This document shows, piece by piece, positions 16,649 through 31,021 of a stretch of 64,000 bases of DNA. Within the stretch, counting starts at the first letter, position 1; each line of letters starts with the position of its first letter. Location: assembly GCF_022343685.1 (NCBI RefSeq), contig NZ_CP092123.1, positions 2,356,001-2,420,000 of the forward strand, written 5' to 3'. The notes below the pieces were generated by a model. The model was given only the letters and a program-made list of their open reading frames with translations. It had not been told where the DNA came from and made no database searches. The translations under genes were made by a program, and so were the position numbers. Source of the DNA: Marinobacterium sediminicola (GTDB lineage: Bacteria > Pseudomonadota > Gammaproteobacteria > Pseudomonadales > Balneatricaceae).

Positions 16649-17362
16649 TCACGCCATTTCTGCCGGTTCGCAAAAAACATAGCCCCGGCCACGCACGGCC
16701 TTGATGGGGCTTGAACGAGAGTGCTTTTGGATTTTCTTGCGCAAGCGACTCATGATCTGCTCAAGACGACGCTCATCATACTGAAGGTAGTCCTCCCCCA
16801 AACTTTCAACCAGCCTGCTCCGCGGAGCATGGGCCGGATAAGAGTGGAAGAGTTGTTGAACAATACTACACTCGGCCTGCGTCAGCAGGATGGAGTGATC
16901 GGCATCCGGTACCAGCAACAGCTGCCTGACGGGATCTAACTGCCAATAATCCTCTGTCTGGCTTTCGCCTCTTCTATCAGAACTGTAAAGATCGAGCCTT
17001 CGAAGCAACGCCTTCAGGTGTGCAAGCAGCTCAGCAAACTCAAAGGGTTTCGTCAGGTATACATCAGCCCCTTTGTCGAGGCCATTGATACGATTATCAA
17101 GACTCGCCCTGGCGGTCAGCATGATAATGCCTATGTTGCTTTTACCGCTCACCAGCTCTTGCGCCACCTTAAAGCCGTCGCTGTCCGGAAGTCCGATATC
17201 AAGAATGACGACATCAAAAGGTATGCGTTTATGCTGATTGAGAAAAGGTGCGGCTTCACTGAAATCTTGCAGCTCGAAGCCTTCTTCTTCCAGCAGGAAG
17301 CTAAGCTCTTCTCGCAGATCCGCATTATCTTCCACCAATGCGATGCGGTGATATTTGTTCAT
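16649..17362 (-). CDS. OmpR-type response regulator linked to the large-protein export cluster
   Basis: Receiver plus winged-helix DNA-binding domain, 237 residues. The receiver has the acidic pair in LVEDNADLREE, the phospho-Asp in VVILDIGLPDSDGF, Thr in IIMLTARAS and Lys in VYLTKPFEF. The C-terminal part (LSRLRKK-type recognition helix, here EQIMSRLRKKIQKHSR, then IKAVRGRGYVF) is a typical trans_reg_C domain. Its start overlaps the histidine kinase stop by 4 bases (ATGA), so the two are a cognate pair. Being last in the minus-strand cluster, it likely regulates the export genes upstream; target sites are unknown. Confidence 0.92.
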   Translation of the reverse strand: MNKYHRIALVEDNADLREELSFLLEEEGFELQDFSEAAPFLNQHKRIPFDVVILDIGLPDSDGFKVAQELVSGKSNIGIIMLTARASLDNRINGLDKGADVYLTKPFEFAELLAHLKALLRRLDLYSSDRRGESQTEDYWQLDPVRQLLLVPDADHSILLTQAECSIVQQLFHSYPAHAPRSRLVESLGEDYLQYDERRLEQIMSRLRKKIQKHSRSSPIKAVRGRGYVFCEPAEMA

Positions 17363-19302
17363 TTTCCAAATCCTTGCAAACGAACACGAATCTCGGTGCC
17401 GGACTTGCCGGTTTCAACATCTATCCAGCCATTAAAACGCTCTACCGCTTCTTTAACGACAAAAAGCCCCAAACCCAAGCCGGGAACGGCGGCATTTTCA
17501 TTCGCCCGGAAATGACGATCAAACATATGTTCGCATACATATTGATCCATTCCCGGCCCCTTGTCTCGCACTATTAGTTCAAGATTATGCCCGCTTATGG
17601 ATATGTAAACGGAAACGTCAGTATCACCCGGGCTGTATTTGAGTGCGTTGTCGATCAGGTTGCGCATCAACACACCCAGAAACTCAGCCGGCATCAAACC
17701 GTTAAAGACAAGTGGCTGATCACTCCCGTGGATCTTGATACGCTCACGTGCAGCTGAGGGAAACTCGTTCAACACGTCAACGAGCACTGGAATCACGTCG
17801 TACTGCTGGGGCTTGGTGCCGGATGACTCAAACTCACCACTGCTTCGCAAAATACTCATCTGCAACAGCAGATTGATTCGAGTGACGGCATCTCGAATGC
17901 GCTGATAACGCTTGCCATGCTGCTCACCATCCGTGCGTTTGCTCTCCAGCTTTTGCAGCGACTGCGCCGAGGTATCGATCACCGCCAGAGGGGTCCGCAC
18001 TTCGTGTGAGAACATGTCCATGAATAGCTCATGGGATAAACGTAACGACCGTTCCAGACCCGCCTCCTTTCTGGATTCCTCTGCCGCTCGTTTTGCAGCC
18101 CGTATGAGTGCCTCGGACTTACGAACGGAAAACATCAGGATGAAGTGGAGAGACAACTGAAAAGACAGGATCATCAAGGGGGCAATATAGGTCGTTCCGA
18201 CCGTAACAGGCATATAGCCGATCGTGTAGAGGCAGTTTACCGCCACAAAAATACCGAAGATGAAGAAACCTCCCGCACGAAATCGCTGTTCCGAATCCAT
18301 CTGGCGCCAGCTCAACAGCAGGGGTACTGACACAACCAGCGGGAATGACGACACATAGGTGTTAACCACCGACATGGCAACGGCATATTGGTTCTGATAG
18401 GCAAATATCATCCCCGTTAATGCCAGGCCGATCCCGATCAGAAACAACCCATTGACCCAACGCGATCCAATGTATTGAAAGTTCAACATCCGCTGGAAAA
18501 ACACAAACGCCAACAGGCCGGTGAACAGCACGCTGAACTGCATCAGCAGATTTTGCTCGGCCTCAGTCATCCCGGGCACCAGGTCACGCATGAAGCCATT
18601 GCTGAACAATATCGTCACCAGCATGGAGGCTTCATAGGTCACGAAGTATATGAACAACGACCGCCTTAACCAGACACCGTTGAGCAGATTGATCAGCAAC
18701 ACCATGAGCAGGATTCCGATCAGAATACCCTCGCTCATGACACGGCCCTCGATCGCGGCATCGATTCGGTCCCCCGGGACCGCCTGTATCAACAGCACGG
18801 AGGTACTGCTGGTCTCCAGCCTCACCAGCAGTTCGACTGGGCCTTCCGGCAAACGGGTGCCCACAAAAGGCAAGCGGTGGTGCAAGTCATGCTCGGGATC
18901 TGCCACCAGGTCACCGGCTGACAACACCTGCAACAGCTCACCCTGCTGAATCACGTGATACTCAACACGATCGAGATAGACCGGACTGCTGAAGAAACCC
19001 CATAACTCAGGTGATGCCGGGCTACGCTCCAGCTGCACATACACCCAGAACACCGAAGTTGAATAGCCCTCACCCACACCATAGGACAGCTGCTTGAAAC
19101 GTCCGGCCCGTTGCGCATCCAACGCTTCTTCCCATGTCAGTTCATGATTGGGGTCTTCCAGTATGCTCAGCTGGCCTTTATCCAGAGCCAACATCTTCTG
19201 ATCCAATAACACCGGAGTGGCTGCGGCAGCAGAAAGCGACCCCATCAACAACAGCAGCACGGCAACCAGCCCGATGCCGGCTTTTTTCACTGAGACGATC
19301 AA
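17359..19302 (-). CDS. 7TMR-DISM sensor histidine kinase
   Basis: 647 residues. A signal peptide (about 1-28) precedes a periplasmic DISMED2-type beta domain (about 40-180) with FWVYVQLERSPASPELWGFF. Seven membrane helices follow (about 190-390), the 7TMR-DISM module thought to sense extracellular, often carbohydrate-like, ligands. The kinase part has the H box FSHEVRTPLAVIDTSAQSL, the N box NLIDNALKYSPGD, and G boxes RDKGPGMD and GLGLGLFVVKEAVERF. The start overlaps the upstream protease-adaptor gene by 4 bases (ATGA) and the stop overlaps the regulator by 4, so the sensor is translationally tied to the export genes. The signal is unknown. Confidence 0.92.
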   Translation of the reverse strand: MIVSVKKAGIGLVAVLLLLMGSLSAAAATPVLLDQKMLALDKGQLSILEDPNHELTWEEALDAQRAGRFKQLSYGVGEGYSTSVFWVYVQLERSPASPELWGFFSSPVYLDRVEYHVIQQGELLQVLSAGDLVADPEHDLHHRLPFVGTRLPEGPVELLVRLETSSTSVLLIQAVPGDRIDAAIEGRVMSEGILIGILLMVLLINLLNGVWLRRSLFIYFVTYEASMLVTILFSNGFMRDLVPGMTEAEQNLLMQFSVLFTGLLAFVFFQRMLNFQYIGSRWVNGLFLIGIGLALTGMIFAYQNQYAVAMSVVNTYVSSFPLVVSVPLLLSWRQMDSEQRFRAGGFFIFGIFVAVNCLYTIGYMPVTVGTTYIAPLMILSFQLSLHFILMFSVRKSEALIRAAKRAAEESRKEAGLERSLRLSHELFMDMFSHEVRTPLAVIDTSAQSLQKLESKRTDGEQHGKRYQRIRDAVTRINLLLQMSILRSSGEFESSGTKPQQYDVIPVLVDVLNEFPSAARERIKIHGSDQPLVFNGLMPAEFLGVLMRNLIDNALKYSPGDTDVSVYISISGHNLELIVRDKGPGMDQYVCEHMFDRHFRANENAAVPGLGLGLFVVKEAVERFNGWIDVETGKSGTEIRVRLQGFGK

Positions 19303-21410
19303 AACCCTGACTCTCGTATGAACAGTGCTACCACTCGCTCAAGCTGATAGAGCAGCGCGCTGCGGGAATCCCCTTCAACCACCATCATGCCCGTCATGCG
19401 TGTTCCTTGCAGTGAGTCGCTGATCGGCTCCTCAGGCATCAGCTGTATGCGGTAGTGAGCGGCCTCGGGAACCAGCCGTTCATCCTGACGCCTGACCGCC
19501 ACGGGTCCGCCGGCCTCGGAGCCCAGTTCGGGATAGGGCAATACCGGCACCGCGGTGATGTCGATTCGCGAAACACTGGCCGGAATAGCCGAATGTTCGC
19601 CATTGATGGCAATGAACATCCCCTGCTGCCCCACGGCCAGCAGGTTCAAGTCGCGCTCGTTCACCAGCCCCTCAAAAAGCATTCGCTCGGGCGCGATCAA
19701 TGTCATCAACGCCTGATCACGGCCGATCCATTGCCCCGATGCCAGGAGTTCACGATCACTGACCCGGCCACTGAATGGCGCTCGAACGGCCAGCATGCGC
19801 GCACGTTTTTCCAGCCCCTGTAACTGCTCATTGAGCTGTCGTCTGCGCTCCTGGTTCACCGCCTGGGCGGCCTTTTCTTCCAGAGACGCGCTCTGACGTG
19901 ACAACTTCAGCTCGACCAACTGCAGCTGGTCACGGGTCTGTGTCAGCTGTTGTTCCAGGTCCGGCGACGCCATCTCCAGCAGAACCTGACCGGCCTCCAC
20001 GCTGTCGCCGGCCTGTACGTAGACGGCCTTGATGCGGCCGTCTTCGGTTGCAAACAGCGTCTGGCTGGATTCTGCCCGCAGGACGGCAGGCACTTGAACG
20101 CTGGTCGAAAAGGGCAACAGCAACCCAAGCAGAACCAGCACCGGTAAAGACCAGCAGGCAATACGCGCAGGTGTCCAATTAAAATCAGCCCGGCGCTCTC
20201 GCCAGACCTGCAGTTCCTTGAAAATCGGCATCACAATGAACCAGAGTATTTCAACCACAAAAAGAATAATGCCCAGCACCTTGAAGAACAGGTGATAGAC
20301 CAGCAACGCAATCCCCAGAAACAGGAAAAAGCGGTACAGCCAGGTGCCCCAGGCATAGAGCGTCAACAGACGCGCTCGGCGGCGGGGCATGGGTTCAGGC
20401 AGCGGATCATCCAACCCCCATAGCCAACGCCGCAAACGCCAGCGTCCCAGGGCAAATGCACGCTGCTGCAGGTTCTCGACGCCCAACAGGTCGGAAAAGG
20501 CGTAATAGCCGTCAAAACGCAGAAAGGGGCTGATATTGACCAGTACCGACGTCACCCAACTGGTCGTGGCGACAAAGAACGCCGCACTGCGCAGCGCGCC
20601 ATCCGGCAGGATGCCCCACAGAAAAGTAGCCACCAGTGCAAGGTACAGCTCGGTCTTTACCCCGGCCGTGACGATCTGCAAACGCTGCCGACGCGAGCGC
20701 AGCTTCCAGGCATCCGTTGTATCCGTGTAGAGCACCGGAAACATGACAAGAAACGCGACCCCCATTGAGGCAACACGGCACCCCAACCGCTGTGAAACCA
20801 GGGCGTGGCCCAGCTCATGGGCGCTTTTCACCAGCACCAGTGTCAGGCCGTACAGCAACATCCCTTCGAGACTGAAAAAGTAGAGAAAAGTACTGCTGAA
20901 CGTGTCCCACTGCCGCAGGACCAGCACGCCACCCAGCAGCCCCATCAGCAGTAACAACCGATGCACACTGTTGCTGAACAACCAGTTCAGGCGCGGGCCG
21001 ACACGTTGCAGCCAGGGGTCCGGGCGTAACAACGGGATTCGAATGAACAGATAGTTGTGCAGCAACCACTGCCAGACGCTTTTTTGCTGCCCTTTGCGTT
21101 GACTCAGGAAGTGATCACAGGCCCCTTTTGATCGCGCCAGTACCAGGTTGTTGGCGATCAGAAAGTCGATGAAAGCCTTGATCTCAGCCTCCTCGTACGC
21201 CAGATCCCGGCCCGCCAGATGGGCCTGCATCTCTTCCAGTGTGTGCCCTGGCTGCCAATGACGGATGAGAGCCAGCGCATCCTCGGCCAGGGTAAAATAG
21301 CGATTGCGCACGCGGTCATGCAGCAGCCACCGTGGCGCGCCGTCTTCATCATGCGAGCCCGGCAGCAGCTTCAGATCCTGACGGATGGCCGGTAAGCGAA
21401 CCTCTACCAT
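19299..21410 (-). CDS. PqqD-like / M50 site-2-type metalloprotease / HlyD-like adaptor fusion
   Basis: About 703 membrane-bound residues combining three parts. Residues ~10-95 resemble a PqqD-like winged-helix (RNRYFTLAEDALALIRHW, then HTLEEMQAHL), a fold used by peptide-modifying systems to grip leader peptides. The membrane part carries the zinc-protease motif SAHELGHALV (HExxH near 198-202) and a second motif NISPFLRFDGYYAFSD whose Asp completes the M50 site, so it looks active. From about 415 on, a membrane helix is followed by an HlyD-like region with lipoyl halves (GRIKAVYVQAGDSVEAGQVL) and coiled coil. It overlaps the GAF-HlyD gene by 7 bases; a GTG at 21419 is an alternative start. 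I infer processing and/or export of the giant protein encoded upstream. Confidence 0.82.
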   Translation of the reverse strand: MVEVRLPAIRQDLKLLPGSHDEDGAPRWLLHDRVRNRYFTLAEDALALIRHWQPGHTLEEMQAHLAGRDLAYEEAEIKAFIDFLIANNLVLARSKGACDHFLSQRKGQQKSVWQWLLHNYLFIRIPLLRPDPWLQRVGPRLNWLFSNSVHRLLLLMGLLGGVLVLRQWDTFSSTFLYFFSLEGMLLYGLTLVLVKSAHELGHALVSQRLGCRVASMGVAFLVMFPVLYTDTTDAWKLRSRRQRLQIVTAGVKTELYLALVATFLWGILPDGALRSAAFFVATTSWVTSVLVNISPFLRFDGYYAFSDLLGVENLQQRAFALGRWRLRRWLWGLDDPLPEPMPRRRARLLTLYAWGTWLYRFFLFLGIALLVYHLFFKVLGIILFVVEILWFIVMPIFKELQVWRERRADFNWTPARIACWSLPVLVLLGLLLPFSTSVQVPAVLRAESSQTLFATEDGRIKAVYVQAGDSVEAGQVLLEMASPDLEQQLTQTRDQLQLVELKLSRQSASLEEKAAQAVNQERRRQLNEQLQGLEKRARMLAVRAPFSGRVSDRELLASGQWIGRDQALMTLIAPERMLFEGLVNERDLNLLAVGQQGMFIAINGEHSAIPASVSRIDITAVPVLPYPELGSEAGGPVAVRRQDERLVPEAAHYRIQLMPEEPISDSLQGTRMTGMMVVEGDSRSALLYQLERVVALFIRESGF

Positions 21411-22744
21411 CCCAGCCACTGCCTCAGTGACGTGATCGGGCGACGGAACAGATAAAAGAACAGGCTCACCCGGTCACCATACACCTTTGCCGTACCCCGC
21501 AAGCCGATACGTGGCGACAGCCGTTCACCGGGCTCGTCCAGCTGGGCGATCAGCCGATAGGCGAACTGCTGATCCGGTGTGGGTCTTGGGGTATAGCCTG
21601 CATGGCTGAGAATAGCCGACCAGGCGTTCAAGGGATCGTTATCCAAAAACACCCTCACCTCGGCACCGGGCAATAGCGTTATCGAGTCCTTAACCGGCAA
21701 CATCACCTCGAACTCCACCTGCTCGGGGTTGGCAACCAGCATGATCCGCTCCCCGACCCGCACGGGTCGCCCCTTCCAGTCATCCGGGTTGTCCAGCACG
21801 GCCACTCCCGGCTGTTCTGCCTTGATTGTTGACCGTTCGAGACGCTCACGGGCCAGTTGCCATTCAGCCTCCTTGAGCCTGACCTGTGCCTCCAGCTCGG
21901 CCAGTCGCGCCTTTTGCTTGGGGTCCATGAAACCGCTCTGCTGCACGGTTTTCAATTCGGCCTGAGCCACCGACAGCATCTGCCGGGCCACCGCTTCACG
22001 GCTGGCCAGCTCACTATCCTCAAGATACGCCAGGGGATCGCCGGGCTTGACGGTTTCATTGGGCTGCACCGCCACGCGCTTGATCGCGCCCTCCAATGGC
22101 GCCGCAATCACCAACGGATTTTTGGCAACGACCTCCACCGGAGCCAGTGTGCTCAGACGAACAGGCCATGCCATCAACACCACCAGCGCCGCAAGTGCCG
22201 CCCACAGGACTCTGCGCTGCCTGAGCCGCGACCACAGCCCCTTGAACGGCTGATGCCTGCGCAACGCAAACAGGGCATGACCGGCCGTTGCCGACAGGTG
22301 CTGGGCAATGCCGCGCTCTGCCTCGCTCCAGGCCTTGTCCCGAAGCAGTAGCAGAACGCCCACTGCCTCGTTATCACGCGCTTCCACCACCAAAGGCTGC
22401 CACAGCAGCTGGTCGGGCAGTTCCAGGGCTCGCCACTCGGCCGCCACCTCGGCGGGCAGGTCGGCCGGTCCTATGCATTGCTGGCCGGCATTGTCTGCGG
22501 CAACCACTGCCTTGCCCAGCCGTTCGGCCCAGCTGATGAAGGGAGAGGTGTAATCCACCGTCGGCAGGTCGGAAACGGCGACCACATTGAGTTGATTGAG
22601 GGCTTCACCTTCCAGGAGGATTGCCTGAGTGTACGGCAGACACTTGTGTGTCTGGTTAACCAGGGTATAAAACAACTGCGCAAGGCTGGATGCCTTGCGC
22701 AGTTGTTGCTCCAGCCCCAAAAGGGCCGCAACGGTTTCGCTCAC
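21404..22744 (-). CDS. GAF domain - membrane helix - HlyD-like adaptor protein
   Basis: 446 residues. The N-terminal ~150 residues look like a GAF domain (SSLAQLFYTLVNQTHKCLPY, then GVLLLLRDKAWSEAERGIAQ), predicted cytoplasmic. One membrane helix (VLWAALAALVVLMAWPV, about 178-195) leads to a periplasmic membrane-fusion part with two lipoyl-like halves (EGAIKRVAVQPNETVKPGDP), a coiled-coil hairpin (about 240-300) and a beta-barrel region. A cytoplasmic small-molecule-type sensor fused to an adaptor is unusual. The stop overlaps the protease-adaptor start; the start is 10 bases from the end of the giant gene. The stated functions come from domains only. Confidence 0.83.
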   Translation of the reverse strand: MSETVAALLGLEQQLRKASSLAQLFYTLVNQTHKCLPYTQAILLEGEALNQLNVVAVSDLPTVDYTSPFISWAERLGKAVVAADNAGQQCIGPADLPAEVAAEWRALELPDQLLWQPLVVEARDNEAVGVLLLLRDKAWSEAERGIAQHLSATAGHALFALRRHQPFKGLWSRLRQRRVLWAALAALVVLMAWPVRLSTLAPVEVVAKNPLVIAAPLEGAIKRVAVQPNETVKPGDPLAYLEDSELASREAVARQMLSVAQAELKTVQQSGFMDPKQKARLAELEAQVRLKEAEWQLARERLERSTIKAEQPGVAVLDNPDDWKGRPVRVGERIMLVANPEQVEFEVMLPVKDSITLLPGAEVRVFLDNDPLNAWSAILSHAGYTPRPTPDQQFAYRLIAQLDEPGERLSPRIGLRGTAKVYGDRVSLFFYLFRRPITSLRQWLGW

Positions 22745-22753
22745 AAAAACTCC

Positions 22754-25700
22754 TTATGCGGACTTCAACATCGCCATCAGACGTGTTCCATATTGGTCGC
22801 GATTCGCCAACTCGTTCTCCAGCTGCTCCGCGAAAGGTCTGAACCCGGACTCTTTCAGCTGCAGAGCATTGTTATCGCTAAGGTTATCACCGGTCTGCGG
22901 ATTAAACAGCTGGGGCAGATCAAGTTTCAGTTCAAGGACGCGCACAGTGCCATCGCTGCCAATTGCGGTGATGCGGATCACCACTTCCTGCTCACCCGCC
23001 GGGGGTTCGATCAGTTTTACCGAACCGGTGGCCGGATCGAGCGTGATCCACTCCGGCAGTGCTTCACCGTTGCCAAGGCTGGCGGTGTAGAACTGCGAAT
23101 TGGCATCAAGGCTGGTGTCTTGCACCACTACCAGCACCTCGCCCGCCGCCACTCGGTCGATCCCTACCACCTGCAACGACACCGTGCTGAACGCCTGCTG
23201 CTGGTCGTCACTGAACAGTACCTGGCCATCGCTGTTGACCTGCACATCCACCGAGGCGCGGGTGGTGGTGTTGCCATCGGTGTTGACCGACTGCACCACC
23301 AGCGCGCCCGGCTCGGCCATGATGATGATCTCATCGCCGCCCGTGCTGCCGCCCGTATCGCCGTCGCTCTCACTCTCAACACCGCTGCCGCTGGTGTCGA
23401 TTTCAGTGCCGCTGTCGTCACCGCCATCATCCATATAGCCACTGCCATCGGTGGGGTCACCGGTGCCACCTTCATCGATCACCCCCTCCGGCAGCTCGCC
23501 GCCACCCTCATCAGAGACGGTACCGGGATCATTGCTGGGGGGCTGGGGGGGCGGTGGTGTATCGCCACCGGGGTTGGCCTCTTCCTGTACCATCGCATTG
23601 ACCGTCAGCACGAAGCTGCGGGTGACACTGGCACCCTCGCTGTCCGTGGCGGTGAGGGTCACCGTAAACCGGCCCGGTTCAGACGGCTTGCCTTCAATCA
23701 CGCCGGTTTCAGGGTCATAGATCAGCCCTTTGGGCAGGCCGGTGATGGTGAAGTCGAGGTCTTCCCGACTCAACACGCTGTCTTTATCGCTGAACAGCGG
23801 CGACACATCCAGCCGATAGTCGCTGCTCATCAGAGTGATTGTCTCGTCATCGGTGAGCTGGACCGAGGTCGCCTCCGGCGCATCGTTGCTGCCAATCAAG
23901 GTGATGGTGACCACTTCGGAGGCGGTGGCACCATCGGTGTCCTCTACCGTGACCGTGTAGCTGAAGGTGACGGTGTCGCCGGCGTTGAGGAAGTCGAGAT
24001 CCGCAGCATCGAGTTGATAGTGCCAGGCCACCTGCCCGTTGTGCGGCAAGTCAGCACCACTGGTCGTGAACGCCGCGACCAGACGACTGGCCAGCCCCGC
24101 ATCCAAGCCATCGACGACACTGTTGTCGTTGCGCCGCCAGACCGGATCCTGATTGACGCTAAAGGTGATCTGCTGGGTATTGTTGAGGTCGTGATCGGTA
24201 AAGCTCACCACGCCGATCTGCACCAGACTCTGCGCCGCCGCATCGACCGCCTCACTGAACGGCTCCGCGGCCGTGACCGCAATCGTTGGGGTATCGTTGC
24301 TGCCATTGATGGTAAAGGTGATCACTGCATCTGCGGCGGCATCCTGACTGTCCCGTGCGGTGACGGTGTAGCTGAAGGTGAGGGTCTCGCCCTTGGCGAG
24401 GAAGTCGAGATCCGCTCCGGTGACGTTGTAACGCCAATCGACGCTGCTCGGTGCCGCCGCATCCTGGGTGGTCGCAATCGAGAAACCGCTCTCCAATAAG
24501 GTGACCAGTGCTGCATCCAGAGTGCCGCCACTCCACGCCATATCCGAATTTGAGGCAAAGGTGATATCGACCAGATCGGTGGTGTCGAGATCTCGGAACG
24601 CCACCACGCCGGTTTCAGTCAGCGCCTGCGCGCTGGAGTCACCCGCCACTTCGCTCAACGCTTCGGCGGCCTCTACGGTGATGGTCGGTGCATCATTAGT
24701 GCCAGTAATAGTGAACAGGACCTGCTGAGTCACGGGGACGTCAGCACTGTCGGTGGCGGTAACGGTGTAGCTGAAGGTGAGGGTTTCACCGCTGGCGAGG
24801 AAGTCGAGGTCGATACCGGCCACATCGTAAGACCAATCCACACTTCCCGGTGCCTCAGCGTTAAGAGTATCCGCAATGGTGAAGCCATTGATCAGCGCGG
24901 CCGCTACACCCGTATCCAGCGGCTCGGCAGTGGTGGCACCACTCCAGCTAATATCGCCGTTATCGGCAAAGGTGATATCGATCCGGTCGTTGGTATCGAG
25001 ATCCCCAAAGTTGACCACACCACTGTCACTCAACACCTGTGTGCTGGAGTCACCCGCCACTTCGGTGATCGCCTCGGCGGCCTCTACCGAGAGGGTCGGC
25101 GCATCGTTGGTGCCGGTGAGGGTAACGCGGAGGGTATCCGTGCTCTCAACACCCTGCTCGTCGGTCAGGGTGAAGGTGTAGCTGAAGGTGATGGTCTCAC
25201 CCTTGGCCAGGAAATCGAGGTTCGCATCGGTGACACTGTAACTCCAGGCAATTGTGCCCGGTGCCGCCGCACTGCTGGTGGTCGGAATCGATAGCCCCGC
25301 TACCAGAGCGGCGGCGAGATCCGTGTCCAGAGTACCGCCACTCCAGTCGATATCCTCATTGCTCACAAACGTGATATCGATCAGATCGGTCGTGTCCAGA
25401 TCCGCAAATTCAACCGTGCCACTCTCTGTCAGGGGCTGTGCACTGGAGTCACCGACCACTTCGCTCAACGCCTCGGCGGCTTCAACGCTGATGGTCGGTG
25501 CATCGTTAGTGCCGGTGATGGTGAAGGTCACCTGCTGGGTGGCGGTGGCGTCGGCACTGTCGGTAGCCGTCACGGTGTAGCCGAAGGTGAGAGTTTCGCC
25601 CGCGGCCAGAAAGTCGAGATTGATACTGGCCACGTCGAAGGACCACTCCAGACTGCTGCCCGGCAGCGCATCAATCGTTTCGGGAATGGAGAAACCCGCA

Positions 25701-26563
25701 ATCAGCGCGTCGTTAATCGCCCCGCTCAGCGGCTCCTCGGCAGTGGCGCCGCTCCAGTCCACCGCGCCATCGCTGGCAAAGGTGATGTCAATGCGGTCGG
25801 TCGTGTCGAGGTCGTTGAAAACCACCACGCCGCTGTCACTCAAGGCCTGGCCACTGGAGTCGCCCTCCACTTCGGTGATCCCGTCGGCGGCCTCCAGCGC
25901 CAGAATCGGCGCATCGTTGGTGCCGGTGATGGTCAGGGTGAGGAATTTGGAGGTCGAGGCACCGGCAAGGTCTGTTGCACTGATCTCGTACGAGAGGGTT
26001 AGGGTCTCACCCTCCGCAAGGAAATCGAGGTCAGCCCCCTGCATATTGTACTGCCAGTTGGCAGTGCCAGCGGCCGTCGCTGACGTCGGCAGAGTGGTGG
26101 TGAAGCCGCTAAGCAAATGAGCGGCCTGAACGCTGTCCAACGATCCACCACTCCAAACAACATTGGATGAAGAGCGTTGTAACGACAGGGTATCGCCGGA
26201 AGCGTAGTCAAAATCGACATCATTGAAGCTGATTTTTCCGCTGCTGCTCACCCCGCTTGCGGCCTCGTCCATGGCAATGGAGGCACCGGCATCGGCGGTA
26301 ACCAGCAGCTCAGGAGCATCATTGACGGGTGTCACCCGAAAGGTCAGTTCATAAAAACTCTCCGGGTAGTGATTGGCCAGATCATAGTGCCACCACTCCT
26401 CTGGTCTGAGCATATAACTAAGACCAGAAACACTTCGATCGTCTACAAAAAATTTGACCGTAACCTCGCCATTGAAATTCTCATTCGGGATAAACTTCAC
26501 CCCACCTGAATCCATATCCCAGGTTGTGAAGTCATAAAACGACCCTAACTCAACCAACCCAAC
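22754..26563 (-). pseudogene. C-terminal part of giant VCBS-repeat surface protein, cut off by an IS
   Basis: About 1267 residues of open frame, continuing the gene that begins at 28626. The frame has no native start: it runs upstream into the IS and hits a stop there. A short N-terminal stretch is followed by six VCBS-type repeats of ~137 residues, each ending with LDFLAxGETLTFSYTVTA and TITGTNDAP. Then comes a cadherin/Ig-like domain (GLPKGLIYDPETGVIEGKP), a Pro/Gly/Asp-rich linker and a C-terminal region ending YGTRLMAMLKSA. I see no RTX nonapeptides, LPXTG or PEP-CTERM. Removing the IS would rejoin both parts in frame (...FFLQDG + LVELGSF...) to give ~1560 residues. Likely surface adhesin or matrix protein. 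Confidence 0.85.
23880..26320 (-). repeat. Six tandem ~411-bp units encoding VCBS repeats
   Basis: The plus-strand signature around gcatcgttggtgccggtga recurs near 25910, 25500, 25095, 24690, 24290 and 23885, with spacing of about 400-411 bp; a more diverged unit starts near 26310. Units 3 to 5 are most alike in protein and DNA, pointing to recent duplication or gene conversion. Such arrays are prone to copy-number change and misassembly. Confidence 0.85.
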
Positions 26564-26634
26564 GGTAATCCCCCCGAAAAGTAGCAGTGCTCAAAAGTAG
26601 AATTTTCTCGTAATGTATACGCAGGAGGTTCTGC

Positions 26635-26901
26635 ATGAAGAAGTCCCGATACACCGACAGCCAGATCATGGCGATACTGAAACAAGCGGAAGCAGGTACC
26701 CCAGTTCCCGAACTATGTCGTGAACATGGGATGAGCAGCGCCACATTTTATAAGTGGCGGGCGAAATACGGCGGCATGGATGCTTCGTTGATGGCTCGGC
26801 TGAAAGAGCTTGAAGATGAAAACCGCCGCCTGAAGAAAATGTATGCTGAAGAGCGGCTGAAGGCCGAGATCGTCCAGGAAGCACTGCAAAAAAAGTGGTG
26901 A
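26635..26901 (+). CDS. IS3-family transposase OrfA
   Basis: 88 residues with a helix-turn-helix that binds the IS ends ([20 protein letters not shown], then [20 protein letters not shown]) and a leucine-zipper-like C-terminus ([20 protein letters not shown]). This layout is characteristic of the IS407 group. A good ribosome site (GGAGGTTCTGC) precedes the ATG. The frame ends just after an A AAA AAG heptamer, so a fraction of ribosomes should shift -1 into OrfB to make the complete OrfAB transposase. Confidence 0.93.
26889..26895 (+). other. Programmed -1 frameshift site A_AAA_AAG
   Basis: In the OrfA frame the codons read CAA AAA AAG TGG TGA, so the heptamer A AAA AAG is correctly phased for tandem slippage. 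OrfB is in the -1 frame and overlaps OrfA by 7 bases. This is the usual IS3-family arrangement for making the OrfAB fusion. Confidence 0.8.
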
Positions 26902-27710
26902 AGCCGTCTCGGCGCAAGGAGATGGCACAGACCTATGTTGCTTCCCGTGGCGTCAGTATCCGGCTTGCCTGTGCTGCCTTTGGTATCAGCGAATCCTGCT
27001 ACCGGTACCAACCCAAGCTGTCATCGGAGAATGCTGAGATTGCAGATTGGTTGATCCGCCTGACTGAACAGGATTCAGACTGGGGCTTTGGTATTTGCTT
27101 TGACTACCTGCGTAATGTGAAAGGCTTCGGCTGGAACCATAAGCGCGTATACCGTATCTACTGTGAACTTGCATTGAATCTGCGCATACGGCCTCGGCGG
27201 CGCCTAAAGCGCCATAAGCCGGAGCCGTTGAAACAGCCCCTGCGACGCAACCAGGTGTGGTCGATCGACTTCATGCACGATCAGCTGTCGGATGGCAGAA
27301 GCTACCGGCTGCTCAATGTGATCGATGACTACCGGCGAGAAGGACTGGCAATAGAAGCAGGCTTCTCTCTGCCATCCATGCGAGTGATACGCACCCTGTC
27401 TCAGTTGATTGAGTGGAGGGGAAAACCATCGCACATTCGCTGTGACAACGGCCCAGAATTCATCAGTCACGAATTCACCAACTGGGCTCGTAAACATGAC
27501 ATCCGGATTGAGTATATTCAACCCGGCAAGCCTCAACAGAACGCTTACATCGAGCGTCACAATCGAACGCTCCGCTACAGCTGGGTCAGTAAGCATCTAT
27601 TCGAAACACTGGAGGACGTTCAGGATTATGCAACGCAGTGGCTCTGGTTTTACAATCATGAGCGGCCGCACAAAGCCAATGGTGGCCAGCCACCACTAAA
27701 AGTGGCTTAG
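26895..27710 (+). CDS. IS3-family transposase OrfB (DDE integrase domain)
   Basis: 271 residues. An N-terminal HTH_21-like part ([20 protein letters not shown]) is followed by the rve integrase core: first Asp in [14 protein letters not shown], second Asp in [11 protein letters not shown], and the Glu in [15 protein letters not shown] with the usual 35-residue spacing. The DDE set is intact and the C-terminus [15 protein letters not shown] is typical, so the element is probably still active. It is most likely produced as an OrfAB fusion by frameshifting; an independent GTG start at 26895 lacks a convincing ribosome site. Confidence 0.93.
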
Positions 27711-27744
27711 CCTCTACTTTTGGCATCAGCTAAAAAGGGGAGGA

Positions 27745-28626
27745 TTACCCATCTTGGAGAAAGAAATTATCGGCCGAGGTACGGCCGCTCACATCAAACT
27801 TAATATACCCTTCACGATAGTCATTACCGCCAGAAAAGGTGATACCAGAGTCGATCACTATTGGCTGACCATTTTCAACATAGGTCACCTCTGAAACGGA
27901 TGCGTTCACCGTTATTGCCAACACCCCTTCAAAACTAACCGCCGCCAGCTCATCGGTCTCAATCAAGCCACTTTCGGCCTCCAGCTCCCAGTCACCGCCC
28001 AGACCCGCCGAACCGGTGAGGTCTTCCGAAGCCGCCACATCGGCCTGGGTCAGTTCAGCCACAGAGTCGATAAAACTCTGGCCTTCACTGTCTGCCCCCA
28101 CGTAGCAGCCGTAGAGCATCAGGTCGCCGTCTTCCGTCAGGGATTCACCCAGCGCGGACAAAAGTTGAGCATTGGCATCCAGGTTTTGACCATTCAGCGT
28201 CAGGCTACCCAGCTTCAACTCACCCACATCCCCATGCGAAAACAGGTGGATCGCATCAATGCCGGTCTGCCCCTGCAAGGCTGCGACGATCTGCTCCAGA
28301 CCGTTTTCGCTGCCATCAATCAGGATGACTTCGACGTTGTCACCCAGCCCATCGATCAGGCTCTGATAGTCGTCAACCGAGGTATCGACAAAGGCAACCT
28401 CGCGGCGGTTGCCGGGTTCGTTTCCGGTCGGCGCAGGCGCGGCAAAGTGAACGCTCTGATCCGCGGACTCGGTATGCACCGCTTCATCCTGATAGGCCAC
28501 ATCGGTGGTCATCTCAGCGGTGGTGGCAACAGCGGCACCATCCAGCAGGATACGGGGTTCCAACGCCGTAATCAGCGGCTTGCGACGAAAACGAATCGGG
28601 GAGGTGGGGGTCGGTTTTTTCATCAT
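27745..28626 (-). pseudogene. N-terminal part of giant surface protein: LEPR-type signal and DUF4347 domain
   Basis: 293 residues ending at a TAA supplied by the IS. The basic N-terminus leads to LEPRILLDGAA (residues 22-32), the LEPR-XLL-type motif found at the start of many large repeat proteins and suspected to be a sorting signal. There is no classical Sec signal peptide. Residues ~75-220 form a DUF4347 domain with IHLFSHGDVGELKLG (H131) and DLMLYGCYVG (C174); a His in SHG and a Cys after a hydrophobic strand is the layout of caspase/gingipain-like clan CD proteases. The ribosome site AAGGGAT lies before the ATG. It follows the adaptor gene by 50 bp in the same operon. Protease activity is inference. 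Confidence 0.85.
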
Positions 28627-28676: not shown

Positions 28677-29405
28677 TTACTGAGCATTGGGCGCGTTAAA
28701 AACCGCTGTTGCGCTCATGCCGGGTATCAGTTGTGTATCCTGAGACAAACTTGCCCGCAGCAGGACGGTCTGGCTGACAGCGTCGATTGCCGGAATAATG
28801 GCACTAACCTGAGCGACAGCTGCCTCATCGTGCCCATCCACTTGCAGTTGCAACGACTGACCAGTTTCAAGCCAGCTCAACCAGCCGGCAGGCACCACAA
28901 TTTCAGCTTCAAGCTGGCGGTCGCCGACAATCTCGATCAGCTCCTGTTGCTGACGGATATTTTCATGCGCATTGACTCTGACGCCGACTACGCGGCCATC
29001 CCAGGGCGCCTTGATCGTGCAACGCTGTGTGTTGAGTCTGGCAATATTCAATTCTGCCAGGGACTGGGCATATTCCGACTGGGCCAGCGCCACATCAACC
29101 TCACCGATGGAGTTGAAGGAGCGAAGCTCTCGTGCGTTGTCCCGCTTGATTTTGGCGGCACGAACTTCGGCTGATACCTTCTCGGCCTGAGCCTTGTAGA
29201 GCGCACAATCAAGCTCGACCAGTGGGTCCCCCTTGGCAAAGGCCTCACCGGCACGAACCGGCAGACGTTCAACCCTGGCAGCCAACTCACCGGACAGGAC
29301 GGCCCGGTCCAACGCCTTGATGACGGCTCTGGCTTCATACTCAGCCAGAGCCGTTGCCGGCAGCAGCAACGCCACTGCCAGCGAACTCAGGAGCCGACGG
29401 GACAT
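28677..29405 (-). CDS. Periplasmic membrane-fusion (HlyD/RND-type) adaptor without membrane anchor
   Basis: 242 residues with a cleavable-looking signal (SLAVALLLPATALAEYEA, end near 21) and no later membrane helix or lipobox, so it should be soluble in the periplasm. The lipoyl-like halves are LAARVERLPVRAGEAFAKGD and TIKAPWDGRVVGVRVNAHEN, separated by a short coiled coil (~70-115); a beta-barrel part follows. It is small for the family. Its start shares one base with the stop of the TolC-like gene (TGATG), pointing to a joint complex with it. It probably bridges the TolC-like channel and the HlyD parts of the two downstream membrane proteins. Confidence 0.85.
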   Translation of the reverse strand: MSRRLLSSLAVALLLPATALAEYEARAVIKALDRAVLSGELAARVERLPVRAGEAFAKGDPLVELDCALYKAQAEKVSAEVRAAKIKRDNARELRSFNSIGEVDVALAQSEYAQSLAELNIARLNTQRCTIKAPWDGRVVGVRVNAHENIRQQQELIEIVGDRQLEAEIVVPAGWLSWLETGQSLQLQVDGHDEAAVAQVSAIIPAIDAVSQTVLLRASLSQDTQLIPGMSATAVFNAPNAQ

Positions 29406-31021
29406 CAGCTGACCTCACCTTCGGCGTCAGCTTCGACAGCGCCTTCAACCTCGGCTTCGGCTGCAACTTCAGCTTCGGCGGCTGCCTGTTCGGTTTCCAG
29501 CTCTTCCTGCTGCTGAGTCACCTGTTCCATCTGGCCGCTCTGCCACTGAGCAAAGCGCTCACCAATGCGTTCACTCAACTCTTGCAGAGAGACCTGGTTG
29601 TAGTCTTCAGGCAGCAGATCCATGCCCATGGTCACGTAAATGCGGCCATAGCTGTTCTGCAAATCTGCATAGGCCACATCGCGGCGCAGCTCGGCCAGCA
29701 CGGTGTTGAGTGACTCGCGGATCAAGTCCAGCTTGGAAGTCCGCTTGAGACGGGCACTGTTGCGCGTCTGTTCGCTGATACGCTCGGCCACACTCAGGTA
29801 TTCCCCGGCCAGATCAAAGCTTTTACGGGCCTGTTCGTAGCGGATGCGGGACAGGTGCACCTGCGTCAGCACTGCCATGGAGGCTGCCAGACGCTGTTCA
29901 TTGGCCAGCACCTCACGGGTTTTCGCCATGCGACGCTCGGCACCGATTTTAAATACATCGAACAGGTTCCAGCTGATCTGGGCTCCCATGCTGGTCCAGT
30001 CCTGATTCAGCAGGTACTCATTGCTGTCTTCGTATGCGCCCGCCGTCAGGTTGATGCCCGGCAGCAGTCCGAGCATTGCGGCTTTGGTTTCGGCTGCAGA
30101 GATACGCTTCTGGTAATGGGTTTCAACCAGTTCCGGGCGCTGCTGCAGCGCCAGCTCTTCCATCTGTTCCAGCTCAACGGAGAGTTCCGGCACGGTGAAG
30201 GCAGGGCTATCGACATCGGCCAGGGCAAATACCGTACCCGGCTTAAGCCCCATCAGCGCCGCCAGCTCGGTCTTGGCACCCATCAGATCCTGACGCAGTG
30301 ATTGCAAGGCACGCAGAATATCCAGCAACTCACGCTGATAGTACAGAGCCTCCAGTGGTGACTGCAGACGCTTGGTTTCAACCTGACGCGAGTCTTTCAG
30401 CGCATCACTCGCCTGGTCGATCAGCGGATTGATTTTGGTCAGCAAACGCTCGGCCGACACGGCACGCCAGTAGGCCGCGCGCACATCCTGAGTGATGTTG
30501 TGCACCACCTTGCGCTCACGTTCCTTGGTGATCAGGTAGCGGTCGGCATGCTGTTTGGCACGCACGTATGAGAGGCCAAAGTCGAGGATATTCCAGGTAA
30601 ACGCGATATCCTGGGTATCACGTTCCTTGTCCTGAGACACCGAGTAAGAGGGATTCAGCGGTAGAGCATCCGGCTCGCCATCGGTAAAGCTTACACTGGC
30701 AGAAGCCGCATACTCACTACGCTTGGAATACCCGGCTGAAGCGGTCAGATTGGGCAGCATCTCATGCTGAGCCAGCTCAACCTGTCCCTGCGCCAACGCA
30801 GCTTCCAGCGCTTTGAGCTTCTTGTCGCGGTTGTTCAGCACAGCACGTGCAATGGCCTCGTCCAGCGAAACGGCAGACTCAAGAGCCTGCTCCTGAGCCA
30901 ACAGCTGGATATCGGCCTGGGCGGCGGCACTGATGTACTGTTGTGTAATGGTCTGAGGAGTAACGGAACAGCCACTGATGATGGCAGCGATAGCTGTTGC
31001 AAGTAGGGGCTTCTTGTACAT
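29405..31021 (-). CDS. TolC-family outer-membrane channel lipoprotein
   Basis: 538 residues. The signal peptide ends in a lipobox IISGC (Cys18), so it is probably lipid-anchored, as in OprM-type channels. Two OEP repeats are visible: SLDEAIARAVLNNRDKKLKA with TWNILDFGLSYVRAKQHADR, and QRPELVETHYQKRISAAETK with SWNLFDVFKIGAERRMAKTR; the G-x-x-LP (MLPNLTASAGY, LLPGINLTAG) segments match too. The last ~45 residues are an unusual Glu/Ala-rich acidic tail, not part of the channel fold, perhaps periplasmic. As first gene of the cluster it supplies the exit duct. The 235-bp gap upstream, shared with mgtE, must hold the promoters. Confidence 0.9.
   Translation of the reverse strand: MYKKPLLATAIAAIISGCSVTPQTITQQYISAAAQADIQLLAQEQALESAVSLDEAIARAVLNNRDKKLKALEAALAQGQVELAQHEMLPNLTASAGYSKRSEYAASASVSFTDGEPDALPLNPSYSVSQDKERDTQDIAFTWNILDFGLSYVRAKQHADRYLITKERERKVVHNITQDVRAAYWRAVSAERLLTKINPLIDQASDALKDSRQVETKRLQSPLEALYYQRELLDILRALQSLRQDLMGAKTELAALMGLKPGTVFALADVDSPAFTVPELSVELEQMEELALQQRPELVETHYQKRISAAETKAAMLGLLPGINLTAGAYEDSNEYLLNQDWTSMGAQISWNLFDVFKIGAERRMAKTREVLANEQRLAASMAVLTQVHLSRIRYEQARKSFDLAGEYLSVAERISEQTRNSARLKRTSKLDLIRESLNTVLAELRRDVAYADLQNSYGRIYVTMGMDLLPEDYNQVSLQELSERIGERFAQWQSGQMEQVTQQQEELETEQAAAEAEVAAEAEVEGAVEADAEGEVS

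What the first reader, a model, noticed from the sequence alone, without database searches (positions are those of the whole stretch)
27745..28626. DUF4347 domain has a His/Cys layout like caspase-fold (clan CD) proteases, next to a LEPR-type signal
H131 in LFSHGD and C174 in LMLYGC follow hydrophobic strands, the order and spacing typical of caspase, gingipain and CHAT-like proteases. If active, the domain could cut its own giant protein after export. The LEPRILLDGAA motif at residues 22-32 replaces a Sec signal peptide.
Basis: inference. Interest (0 to 1): 0.62.

Follow-up and report, generated by a model that had tools for sequence, protein, structure and literature searches.

The report
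Caspase-like domain heading giant proteins
A domain of unknown function at the front of giant exported bacterial proteins has the fold and active-site residues of a caspase-like protease, probably to cut the giant free of its own head, and the short tag beside it marks giants made next to an unusual exporter that carries a protease of its own.

Summary
Window 27745-28626 (minus strand) encodes 293 aa with LEPRILLDGAA at 22-32 and DUF4347 at 77-225. His131 and Cys174 are near-invariant: 87 of 89 and 88 of 88 in one set. A confident model (pLDDT 95) has caspase topology, with both residues at the predicted strand ends; its best solved match is Tce1 (9QPE), a Pseudomonas T6SS effector called a putative cysteine protease in 2026. 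So the fold is in print for one distant DUF4347 protein, but I found it nowhere for giant proteins.

New here: (1) DUF4347 ends in a conserved aromatic-x3-Leu-(Ala) just before the sequence becomes unrelated, like the P1-Leu/P1'-Ala sites of self-cutting toxin CPDs: a candidate self-cleavage site (Leu236-Ala237). (2) The tag is separable from DUF4347 and tracks an exporter cassette (TolC-like channel, two adaptors, an M50 protease-adaptor fusion) with no ABC ATPase found beside it. (3) Untagged DUF4347 proteins begin at the domain and end like type I substrates.

Cleavage is inferred, not shown. The window's copy is broken: an IS3-family element and probably a deletion separate the DUF4347 head from the VCBS body.

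The parts
27745..28626 (-). N-terminal fragment (293 aa) of a broken giant exported protein: tag, linker, DUF4347, start of the next region
28531..28563 (-). LEPR-XLL tag LEPRILLDGAA (residues 22-32)
   Evidence: NF012209 19.8 bits
27952..28398 (-). DUF4347 (PF14252), residues 77-225, caspase/haemoglobinase-type fold
28234..28236 (-). His131, predicted catalytic His directly after the third core strand
28105..28107 (-). Cys174, predicted nucleophile directly after the fourth core strand
27916..27921 (-). Leu236-Ala237 in SFEGVLA, candidate self-cleavage site (inferred)
26564..27749 (+). IS3-family insertion element (orfA 26635-26901, orfB 26895-27710); five further full-length copies in the genome at 100% identity; ends GGTAATCC / GGATTACC; no target duplication seen
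22754..26563 (-). C-terminal remainder of the giant (VCBS and He_PIG repeats), ending in the tail FRPFAEQLENELANRDQYGTRLMAMLKSA
28677..29405 (-). periplasmic adaptor (HlyD/RND_mfp type)
29405..31021 (-). TolC-like outer-membrane channel (OEP)
21404..22744 (-). adaptor with a weak N-terminal GAF match
19299..21419 (-). M50 metalloprotease-adaptor fusion (HELGH)
17359..19302 (-). 7TMR-DISM sensor histidine kinase
16649..17362 (-). response regulator

Best explanation
DUF4347 is a cysteine protease domain of the caspase/clan CD fold, built into the N-terminus of giant exported surface proteins. Most likely it works in cis: after export it folds outside the cytoplasm and cuts the chain at its own C-terminal border (after the conserved Leu, here Leu236-Ala237), separating the body of the giant from the head. 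In this gene family the head carries an N-terminal LEPR-XLL tag (core [L/M/A]-E-x-R-x-[L/M]-[L/F]-[D/S]-[A/G]) that is not a Sec signal; it most likely addresses the protein to a cassette-encoded exporter made of a TolC-like channel, two adaptors and an M50 protease-adaptor fusion. Shown by computation: fold, conserved dyad, conserved border motif, the tag-exporter link, a second (untagged) class. Inferred: catalysis, the cleavage site, the timing, and that the cassette exports the giant. In this strain the gene is broken by an IS element.
For: Fold: AF2 on 76 aligned sequences, pLDDT 95.2, pTM 0.91, order beta1-alpha1-beta2-alpha2-beta3-His-three short strands-alpha3-beta4-Cys-alpha4-beta5, which matches the published caspase/haemoglobinase core with His and Cys at the ends of beta3 and beta4 and a small three-stranded section between beta3 and alpha3. 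Foldseek best hit 9qpe_G (Tce1); of the 50 rows shown, all but one (4e4y) are Tce1, caspases or legumain. VIA-align: 9qpe_G Z 13.5, rmsd 3.0, 146 aligned; SAVED-CHAT 8tl0_C Z 8.9, 3.4, 132; Craspase, caspases, TcdB CPD, C11 and legumain Z about 6.4-7.4. Dyad conserved. Border: aromatic-x3-Leu in 91 of 98 tagged and 46 of 50 untagged sequences against 26% in shuffles; residue after the Leu is Ala in 45 of 91 and 26 of 46. CPDs of MARTX and clostridial toxins are reported to cut only after Leu and to prefer small P1' residues, Ala over Ser (PMC3153235 passages). Tag-exporter link: of 82 DUF4347 places in relatives, 46 of 46 near an M50-adaptor gene are tagged, against 10 of 36 others (p 1.5e-13). 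Whole genomes of 50 of the 80 named loci: 30 of 30 tagged lie in genomes with a full-length M50-adaptor, against 4 of 20 untagged. With NCBI's own LEPR model: 40 of 41 LEPR genomes among 144 relatives have M50-adaptors (59 genomes have them), and 5 of 5 among 59 Planctomycetota (15 have them).
Against: No protease activity has been shown for any DUF4347 protein in what I read; Tce1 had no effect in yeast or E. coli. I had no model coordinates, so the His-Cys distance was not measured. The border regex was chosen after looking at the sequences. The residue after Leu is Ala in only about half. No energy source was found in the cassettes, so how the giant crosses the inner membrane is unexplained. 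A distant relative, Tce1, acts in a T6SS, so DUF4347 need not be for self-processing.
Confidence: 0.55

Rival explanations
1. DUF4347 is an active clan CD protease, but it cuts other proteins (host, prey or biofilm partners) after the giant displays it, as proposed for the T6SS proteins Tce1 and Tce2.
For: Closest solved structure is the effector Tce1; a catalytic mutant of Tce2, a similar fold, loses yeast toxicity in that paper.
Against: The domain sits at the N-terminal head of very long, otherwise repeat-rich proteins in both classes, an odd place for a displayed enzyme; the conserved Leu-(Ala) border is unexplained.
Confidence: 0.18
2. DUF4347 cuts at the tag (after Arg25 of LEPR or after the DGA), so the tag is its substrate.
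For: Some clan CD families are Arg-specific (clostripain); tag and domain are neighbours, 37-208 residues apart in all but two of 56 cases.
Against: Many DUF4347 proteins have no tag (26 of 82, 32 of 88) and 30 of 62 LEPR-XLL places have no DUF4347. The tag follows the M50-adaptor, not DUF4347.
Confidence: 0.07
3. DUF4347 is a transamidase of the legumain/GPI8 kind: it cuts at its border and joins the giant to a surface amine.
For: GPI-transamidase and legumain chains are among the structural matches (8imx_K Z 6.8, rmsd 4.0, 141 aligned; legumain Z about 6.5).
Against: Those Z-scores are no better than for caspases; no anchor partner was looked for.
Confidence: 0.06
4. DUF4347 is a folded plug or retention head without catalysis; His and Cys are structural.
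For: It is at the N-terminus of proteins that, in the untagged class, end like type I substrates, where such a plug would be the last part to leave.
Against: Near-perfect conservation of exactly the dyad, at the ends of the two catalytic strands; one loss of Cys among 82.
Confidence: 0.14

Closest known systems
Tce1 / PA0256 (PDB 9QPE chain G), Pseudomonas aeruginosa T6SS effector
   Same: Named DUF4347 in the PDB; the profile aligns its HG and YGC with ours at E 0.001; Z 13.5, rmsd 3.0 over 146 residues; its authors call it a putative cysteine protease with His186/Cys240
   Different: 310-aa T6SS cargo, not a giant; about 17-18% identity to the window domain; the word DUF4347 is not in the paper (0 hits) and the passages I read do not speak of giants or LEPR
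C80 autoprocessing CPD of MARTX and large clostridial toxins
   Same: Caspase-like fold (3pee_B Z 6.8, rmsd 3.9, 135 aligned); in cis within very large exported proteins; P1 Leu with small P1' resembles the DUF4347 border
   Different: No sequence match found; inside toxins rather than at an N-terminal head; activated by InsP6, not tested here
CHAT proteases (SAVED-CHAT, Craspase TPR-CHAT)
   Same: Second best fold match, Z 8.9, rmsd 3.4, 132 aligned
   Different: CRISPR-associated defence proteases (recalled)
LEPR-XLL domain (NCBIfam NF012209, LEPR-8K)
   Same: The tag of the window scores above its cut-off
   Different: The model names the motif only; the link to the M50-adaptor cassette was not found in the papers searched
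Type I secretion (LapA/RTX class)
   Same: Giant repeat proteins with a TolC-like channel and adaptors
   Different: No ABC ATPase found beside tagged giants; different C-terminal tail
Daptide/YydH-type M50 leader proteases (NF041824, NF058609)
   Same: The M50 part of the exporter fusion matches them (148 and 25 bits)
   Different: Below their cut-offs; fused here to an adaptor and linked to giants, not RiPPs

Membership tests
Clan CD cysteine peptidases (caspase/haemoglobinase fold) | Core fold with strands 1-4 and helices 1-3 | tested here: met
   definition from PMC4357240 passages
Clan CD cysteine peptidases (caspase/haemoglobinase fold) | His at the end of beta3, in a His-Gly context, conserved | tested here: met
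   H131-G132
Clan CD cysteine peptidases (caspase/haemoglobinase fold) | Cys at the end of beta4, conserved | tested here: met
   C174
Clan CD cysteine peptidases (caspase/haemoglobinase fold) | His and Cys within reacting distance | not tested
   no model coordinates were available
Clan CD cysteine peptidases (caspase/haemoglobinase fold) | Peptide-bond cleavage with strict P1 specificity | not testable with these tools
   needs an assay
DUF4347 (PF14252) | Score over the curated cut-off | tested here: met
   182.6 bits against 24.6
C80 CPD | Self-cleavage after Leu at a domain border | tested here: inconclusive
   a conserved Leu-(Ala) border exists; no assay
C80 CPD | Activation by InsP6 | not tested
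   no binding-site analysis made
LEPR-XLL (NF012209) | Score over the curated cut-off near the N-terminus | tested here: met
   19.8 bits against 17
Type I secretion substrate | Own ABC exporter beside the gene | tested here: not met
   none with Walker A plus signature in 19 cassette loci (the same kind of test finds 9 ABC-like ORFs in other loci); 12 window ORFs scanned with Pfam, none an ABC
Type I secretion substrate | Type I C-terminal signal | tested here: inconclusive
   tails compared by eye only: tagged 21, untagged 22 complete ORFs

The most novel reading that the evidence does not exclude
The LEPR-XLL tag is the address of a so far undescribed export route for giant proteins in several phyla, built from a TolC-like channel, adaptors and an M50 protease-adaptor fusion without an ABC ATPase. 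Maturation would use two proteases: the M50 of the exporter acting on the tagged head, and the clan CD DUF4347 of the cargo cutting itself at a Leu-Ala border to free or anchor the giant.
Probability: 0.3. Interest if true: 0.85.

Novelty: new variant of a known kind. Interest (0 to 1): 0.62.

Why it matters
DUF4347 occurs at the head of giant proteins in many phyla and its role is unknown. Reading it as a caspase-like protease with a named candidate cut site makes the question of how these giants are released or anchored testable with one Cys mutant. Separately, the tag-exporter link suggests what a widespread orphan motif (LEPR-XLL) is for and points to a secretion cassette whose energy source is unknown.

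Tried and rejected
Sequence search of solved structures with the single protein: nothing. With the profile, the top rows were designed TIM barrels with repeated 28-29-residue matches at about 4-5 bits each, discarded as chance; 9qpe_G is the only DUF4347 row. First viral-contig scan with one protein: no relatives; with the alignment, 8.

LEPR as the substrate of DUF4347: lowered, because tag and domain occur apart.

LapB-type type I exporter beside DUF4347: TIGR03375 matches every genome, controls included, so only its table of places was usable; I noticed no coincidence with DUF4347 contigs but did not count it formally.

Second model (residues 1-262) to see whether the tag folds on the domain: tag region pLDDT about 43-67, so no sign that it does; the C-terminal part was also poor there.

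Planctomycete motif PF07595 (recalled as LE-x-R-like) as the same tag: 4 of 59 genomes with sub-cut-off matches, so no conclusion. The wider LEPR model did work there.

Papers: 10 searches found no paper on the fold of DUF4347 in giants or on the LEPR/M50-adaptor link; the library lacks most subscription papers. What I saw: PMC13323088 outline, abstract and passages; PMC8262886, PMC12322963, PMC10868602, PMC4357240, PMC12445089, PMC3153235 passages only; others search listings only. What PF07595 stands for, what CHAT proteases do and the general rule that type I signals are C-terminal are recalled.

Rows dropped: one search read 82 of 85 DUF4347 places (two 46-residue fragments and one weak 106-residue match left out). 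Alignment A2 used 75 of 88 loci plus the window (13 loci left out by hand, mostly near-duplicates; one, L064, has an internal stop). Alignment A3 used 45 loci. In the hand-typed list I counted three places (G029:C32, G064:C1, G000:C1:2499932) as near an M50-adaptor although the rule did not; one search gives the strict count, used here. The tag regex was widened after seeing the relatives; its chance rate is 17 of 16400 shuffles, the named loci were not used to fit it, and the NCBIfam-model counts do not use it.

Full report
What is there. The ORF at 27745-28626 on the minus strand encodes 293 aa. It carries LEPRILLDGAA at residues 22-32, DUF4347 at 77-225 (PF14252, 182.6 bits, E 6e-54), His131 and Cys174. 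NCBIfam's LEPR-XLL model matches residues 21-39 over its cut-off.

The gene is broken. An IS3-family element lies at 26564-27749; five further full-length copies at 100% identity are in the same genome. Its ends read GGTAATCC and GGATTACC, and the flanks show no duplicated target. The remainder of the giant (VCBS and He_PIG repeats) runs from the IS edge to 22754. Compared separately with an intact homologue of 2157 aa (L134), the head matches residues 18-295 and the body matches from about residue 893 on (extrapolated from the best aligned stretch), so about 600 residues have no counterpart; a deletion alongside the insertion is likely, though repeat numbers vary between such proteins.

Fold. 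A profile of 76 sequences gave an AlphaFold2 model with pLDDT 95.2 and pTM 0.91. The order of elements is strand, helix, strand, helix, strand, His, three short strands, helix, strand, Cys, helix, strand. The caspase/haemoglobinase core is described in the same terms, with the His and Cys at the ends of the third and fourth strands and a small three-stranded section between the third strand and the third helix (PMC4357240, passages). Foldseek against the PDB ranks 9qpe_G first (E 1.1e-4), followed almost only by caspases and legumain among the 50 rows shown. VIA-align gives 9qpe_G Z 13.5 (rmsd 3.0, 146 aligned), SAVED-CHAT 8.9 (3.4, 132), then Craspase, caspases, TcdB CPD, C11 and legumain at about 6.4-7.4. 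The last group alone would be in the range that the tool calls common; the clear first two rows and the uniform identity of the rest carry the argument. I had no coordinates, so the His-Cys distance is untested.

Conservation. In 88 loci from named genome contigs and viral contigs plus the window, Cys174 is Cys in 88 of 88 aligned letters and His131 is His in 87 of 89. The scan that fetched the 80 genome loci used a pattern from another part of the domain, so it did not select for the dyad; one of the two patterns that fetched the 8 viral loci contains the Cys. In relatives, Cys is lost in one of 82.

Prior art. 9qpe_G is Tce1 (PA0256), a T6SS cargo solved in a 2026 paper (PMC13323088; outline, abstract and passages read). 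The authors call it a putative cysteine protease with His186 and Cys240 and found the TcdB protease domain as a top structural match. They saw no effect of Tce1 in yeast or E. coli. The profile of the window family aligns HG and YGC of Tce1 with His131 and Cys174.

A candidate cut site. After the last conserved core motif (GGDWELE...G.IE), both classes share a short element, aromatic-x-x-x-Leu, often followed by Ala, and beyond it the sequences become unrelated. It is present in 91 of 98 tagged and 46 of 50 untagged sequences against about 26% in shuffled flanks; the next residue is Ala in 45 of 91 and 26 of 46. In the window it reads SFEGVL-A (Leu236-Ala237). Self-cutting CPDs of MARTX and clostridial toxins are reported to cut only after Leu, to prefer small P1' residues with Ala better than Ser, and to do so at inter-domain borders (PMC3153235, passages). 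I infer that the border is the self-cleavage site. It may instead be just the last strand of the domain.

Two classes of DUF4347 protein. Tagged ones carry a motif with invariant Glu and Arg (fixed in the search pattern; core [LMA]-E-x-R-x-[LM]-[LF]-[DS]-[AG]), usually 37-208 residues before DUF4347. In relatives, untagged ones start 8-69 residues before the domain with one exception at 152. Of complete ORFs, the 22 untagged end in tails that mostly, by eye, look like type I substrates, while many of the 21 tagged share a different tail ([AV]P[TL]xxQL...EQRQ...LAxAL or a relative of it). None of 56 tagged N-termini has a stretch hydrophobic enough for a Sec signal or membrane helix.

The tag follows an exporter cassette, not DUF4347. 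In the window the giant lies between an adaptor and a TolC-like channel on one side and an adaptor with a weak GAF match and an M50 protease-adaptor fusion on the other, with a histidine kinase and a response regulator. Relatives keep much of this set with changes of order. Of 85 DUF4347 places in the 144 genomes searched, 46 lie near an M50-adaptor gene, all 46 on the same strand; 35 have no M50-adaptor hit on their contig. Of the 82 readable, 46 of 46 near ones are tagged against 10 of 36 others. In whole genomes of 50 of the 80 named loci, 30 of 30 tagged loci lie in genomes with a full-length M50-adaptor, against 4 of 20 untagged. One of these four carries a variant tag that the pattern missed, and the two genomes that hold the other three encode other LEPR-XLL proteins. 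With NCBI's model instead of my pattern, 40 of 41 LEPR genomes among 144 have an M50-adaptor (59 of 144 have one), and in Planctomycetota 5 of 5 (15 of 59 have one; p 6e-4). Of 62 LEPR-XLL places in relatives, 30 have no DUF4347; 18 of these lie within 20 kb of an M50-adaptor, 15 on the same strand, 11 have none on the contig and one is further off. So the tag marks giants of this cassette whether or not DUF4347 is present.

The exporter. HExxH is present in 52 of 54 M50-adaptors in one set and 20 of 20 in another, so the protease part is probably active. Its M50 part resembles leader proteases of small peptide pathways. No ORF with both an ABC Walker A and signature motif lies in 19 cassette loci; the same kind of test finds 9 ABC-like ORFs in other loci, two of them beside an untagged DUF4347 protein (L038). 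What drives export is unexplained.

Assessment (my estimates). Fold and dyad: about 0.95. Active protease: about 0.8. Self-cleavage at the border as its main job: about 0.55. Tag as address of the M50-adaptor cassette: about 0.6 as a link, less (0.3) as a full ABC-free route.

Noticed in passing
window 26564-27749: IS3-family element with five more full-length 100% identical copies in the genome, suggesting recent activity; it has split the giant gene.
   Followed up: partly
G000:C1:2499932-2500408 (L002, L003): A second DUF4347 in the same genome sits in an intact ORF of 10,907 aa with a variant tag MEPRYLLSGD.
   Followed up: partly
G000:C1:1308787-1310898 (L145): A further M50-adaptor with a GAF-type adaptor in the same genome without a DUF4347 protein beside it.
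   Followed up: no
G114:C1:650544 and 658731 (L166): One 4156-aa ORF holds two DUF4347 domains about 2,700 residues apart, only the first next to the tag.
   Followed up: no
L115-L122: Eight DUF4347 loci on contigs classed as viral in IMG/VR; whether these are true viral genes was not examined.
   Followed up: no
tagged giants, e.g. L134, L143, L144, L168, L174 C-termini: Many tagged giants share a conserved C-terminal tail that could be a second export or docking signal.
   Followed up: partly
L047: A planctomycete DUF4347 protein has the variant tag MRLEERIVLNAAP; planctomycete N-terminal motifs may be the same signal.
   Followed up: partly
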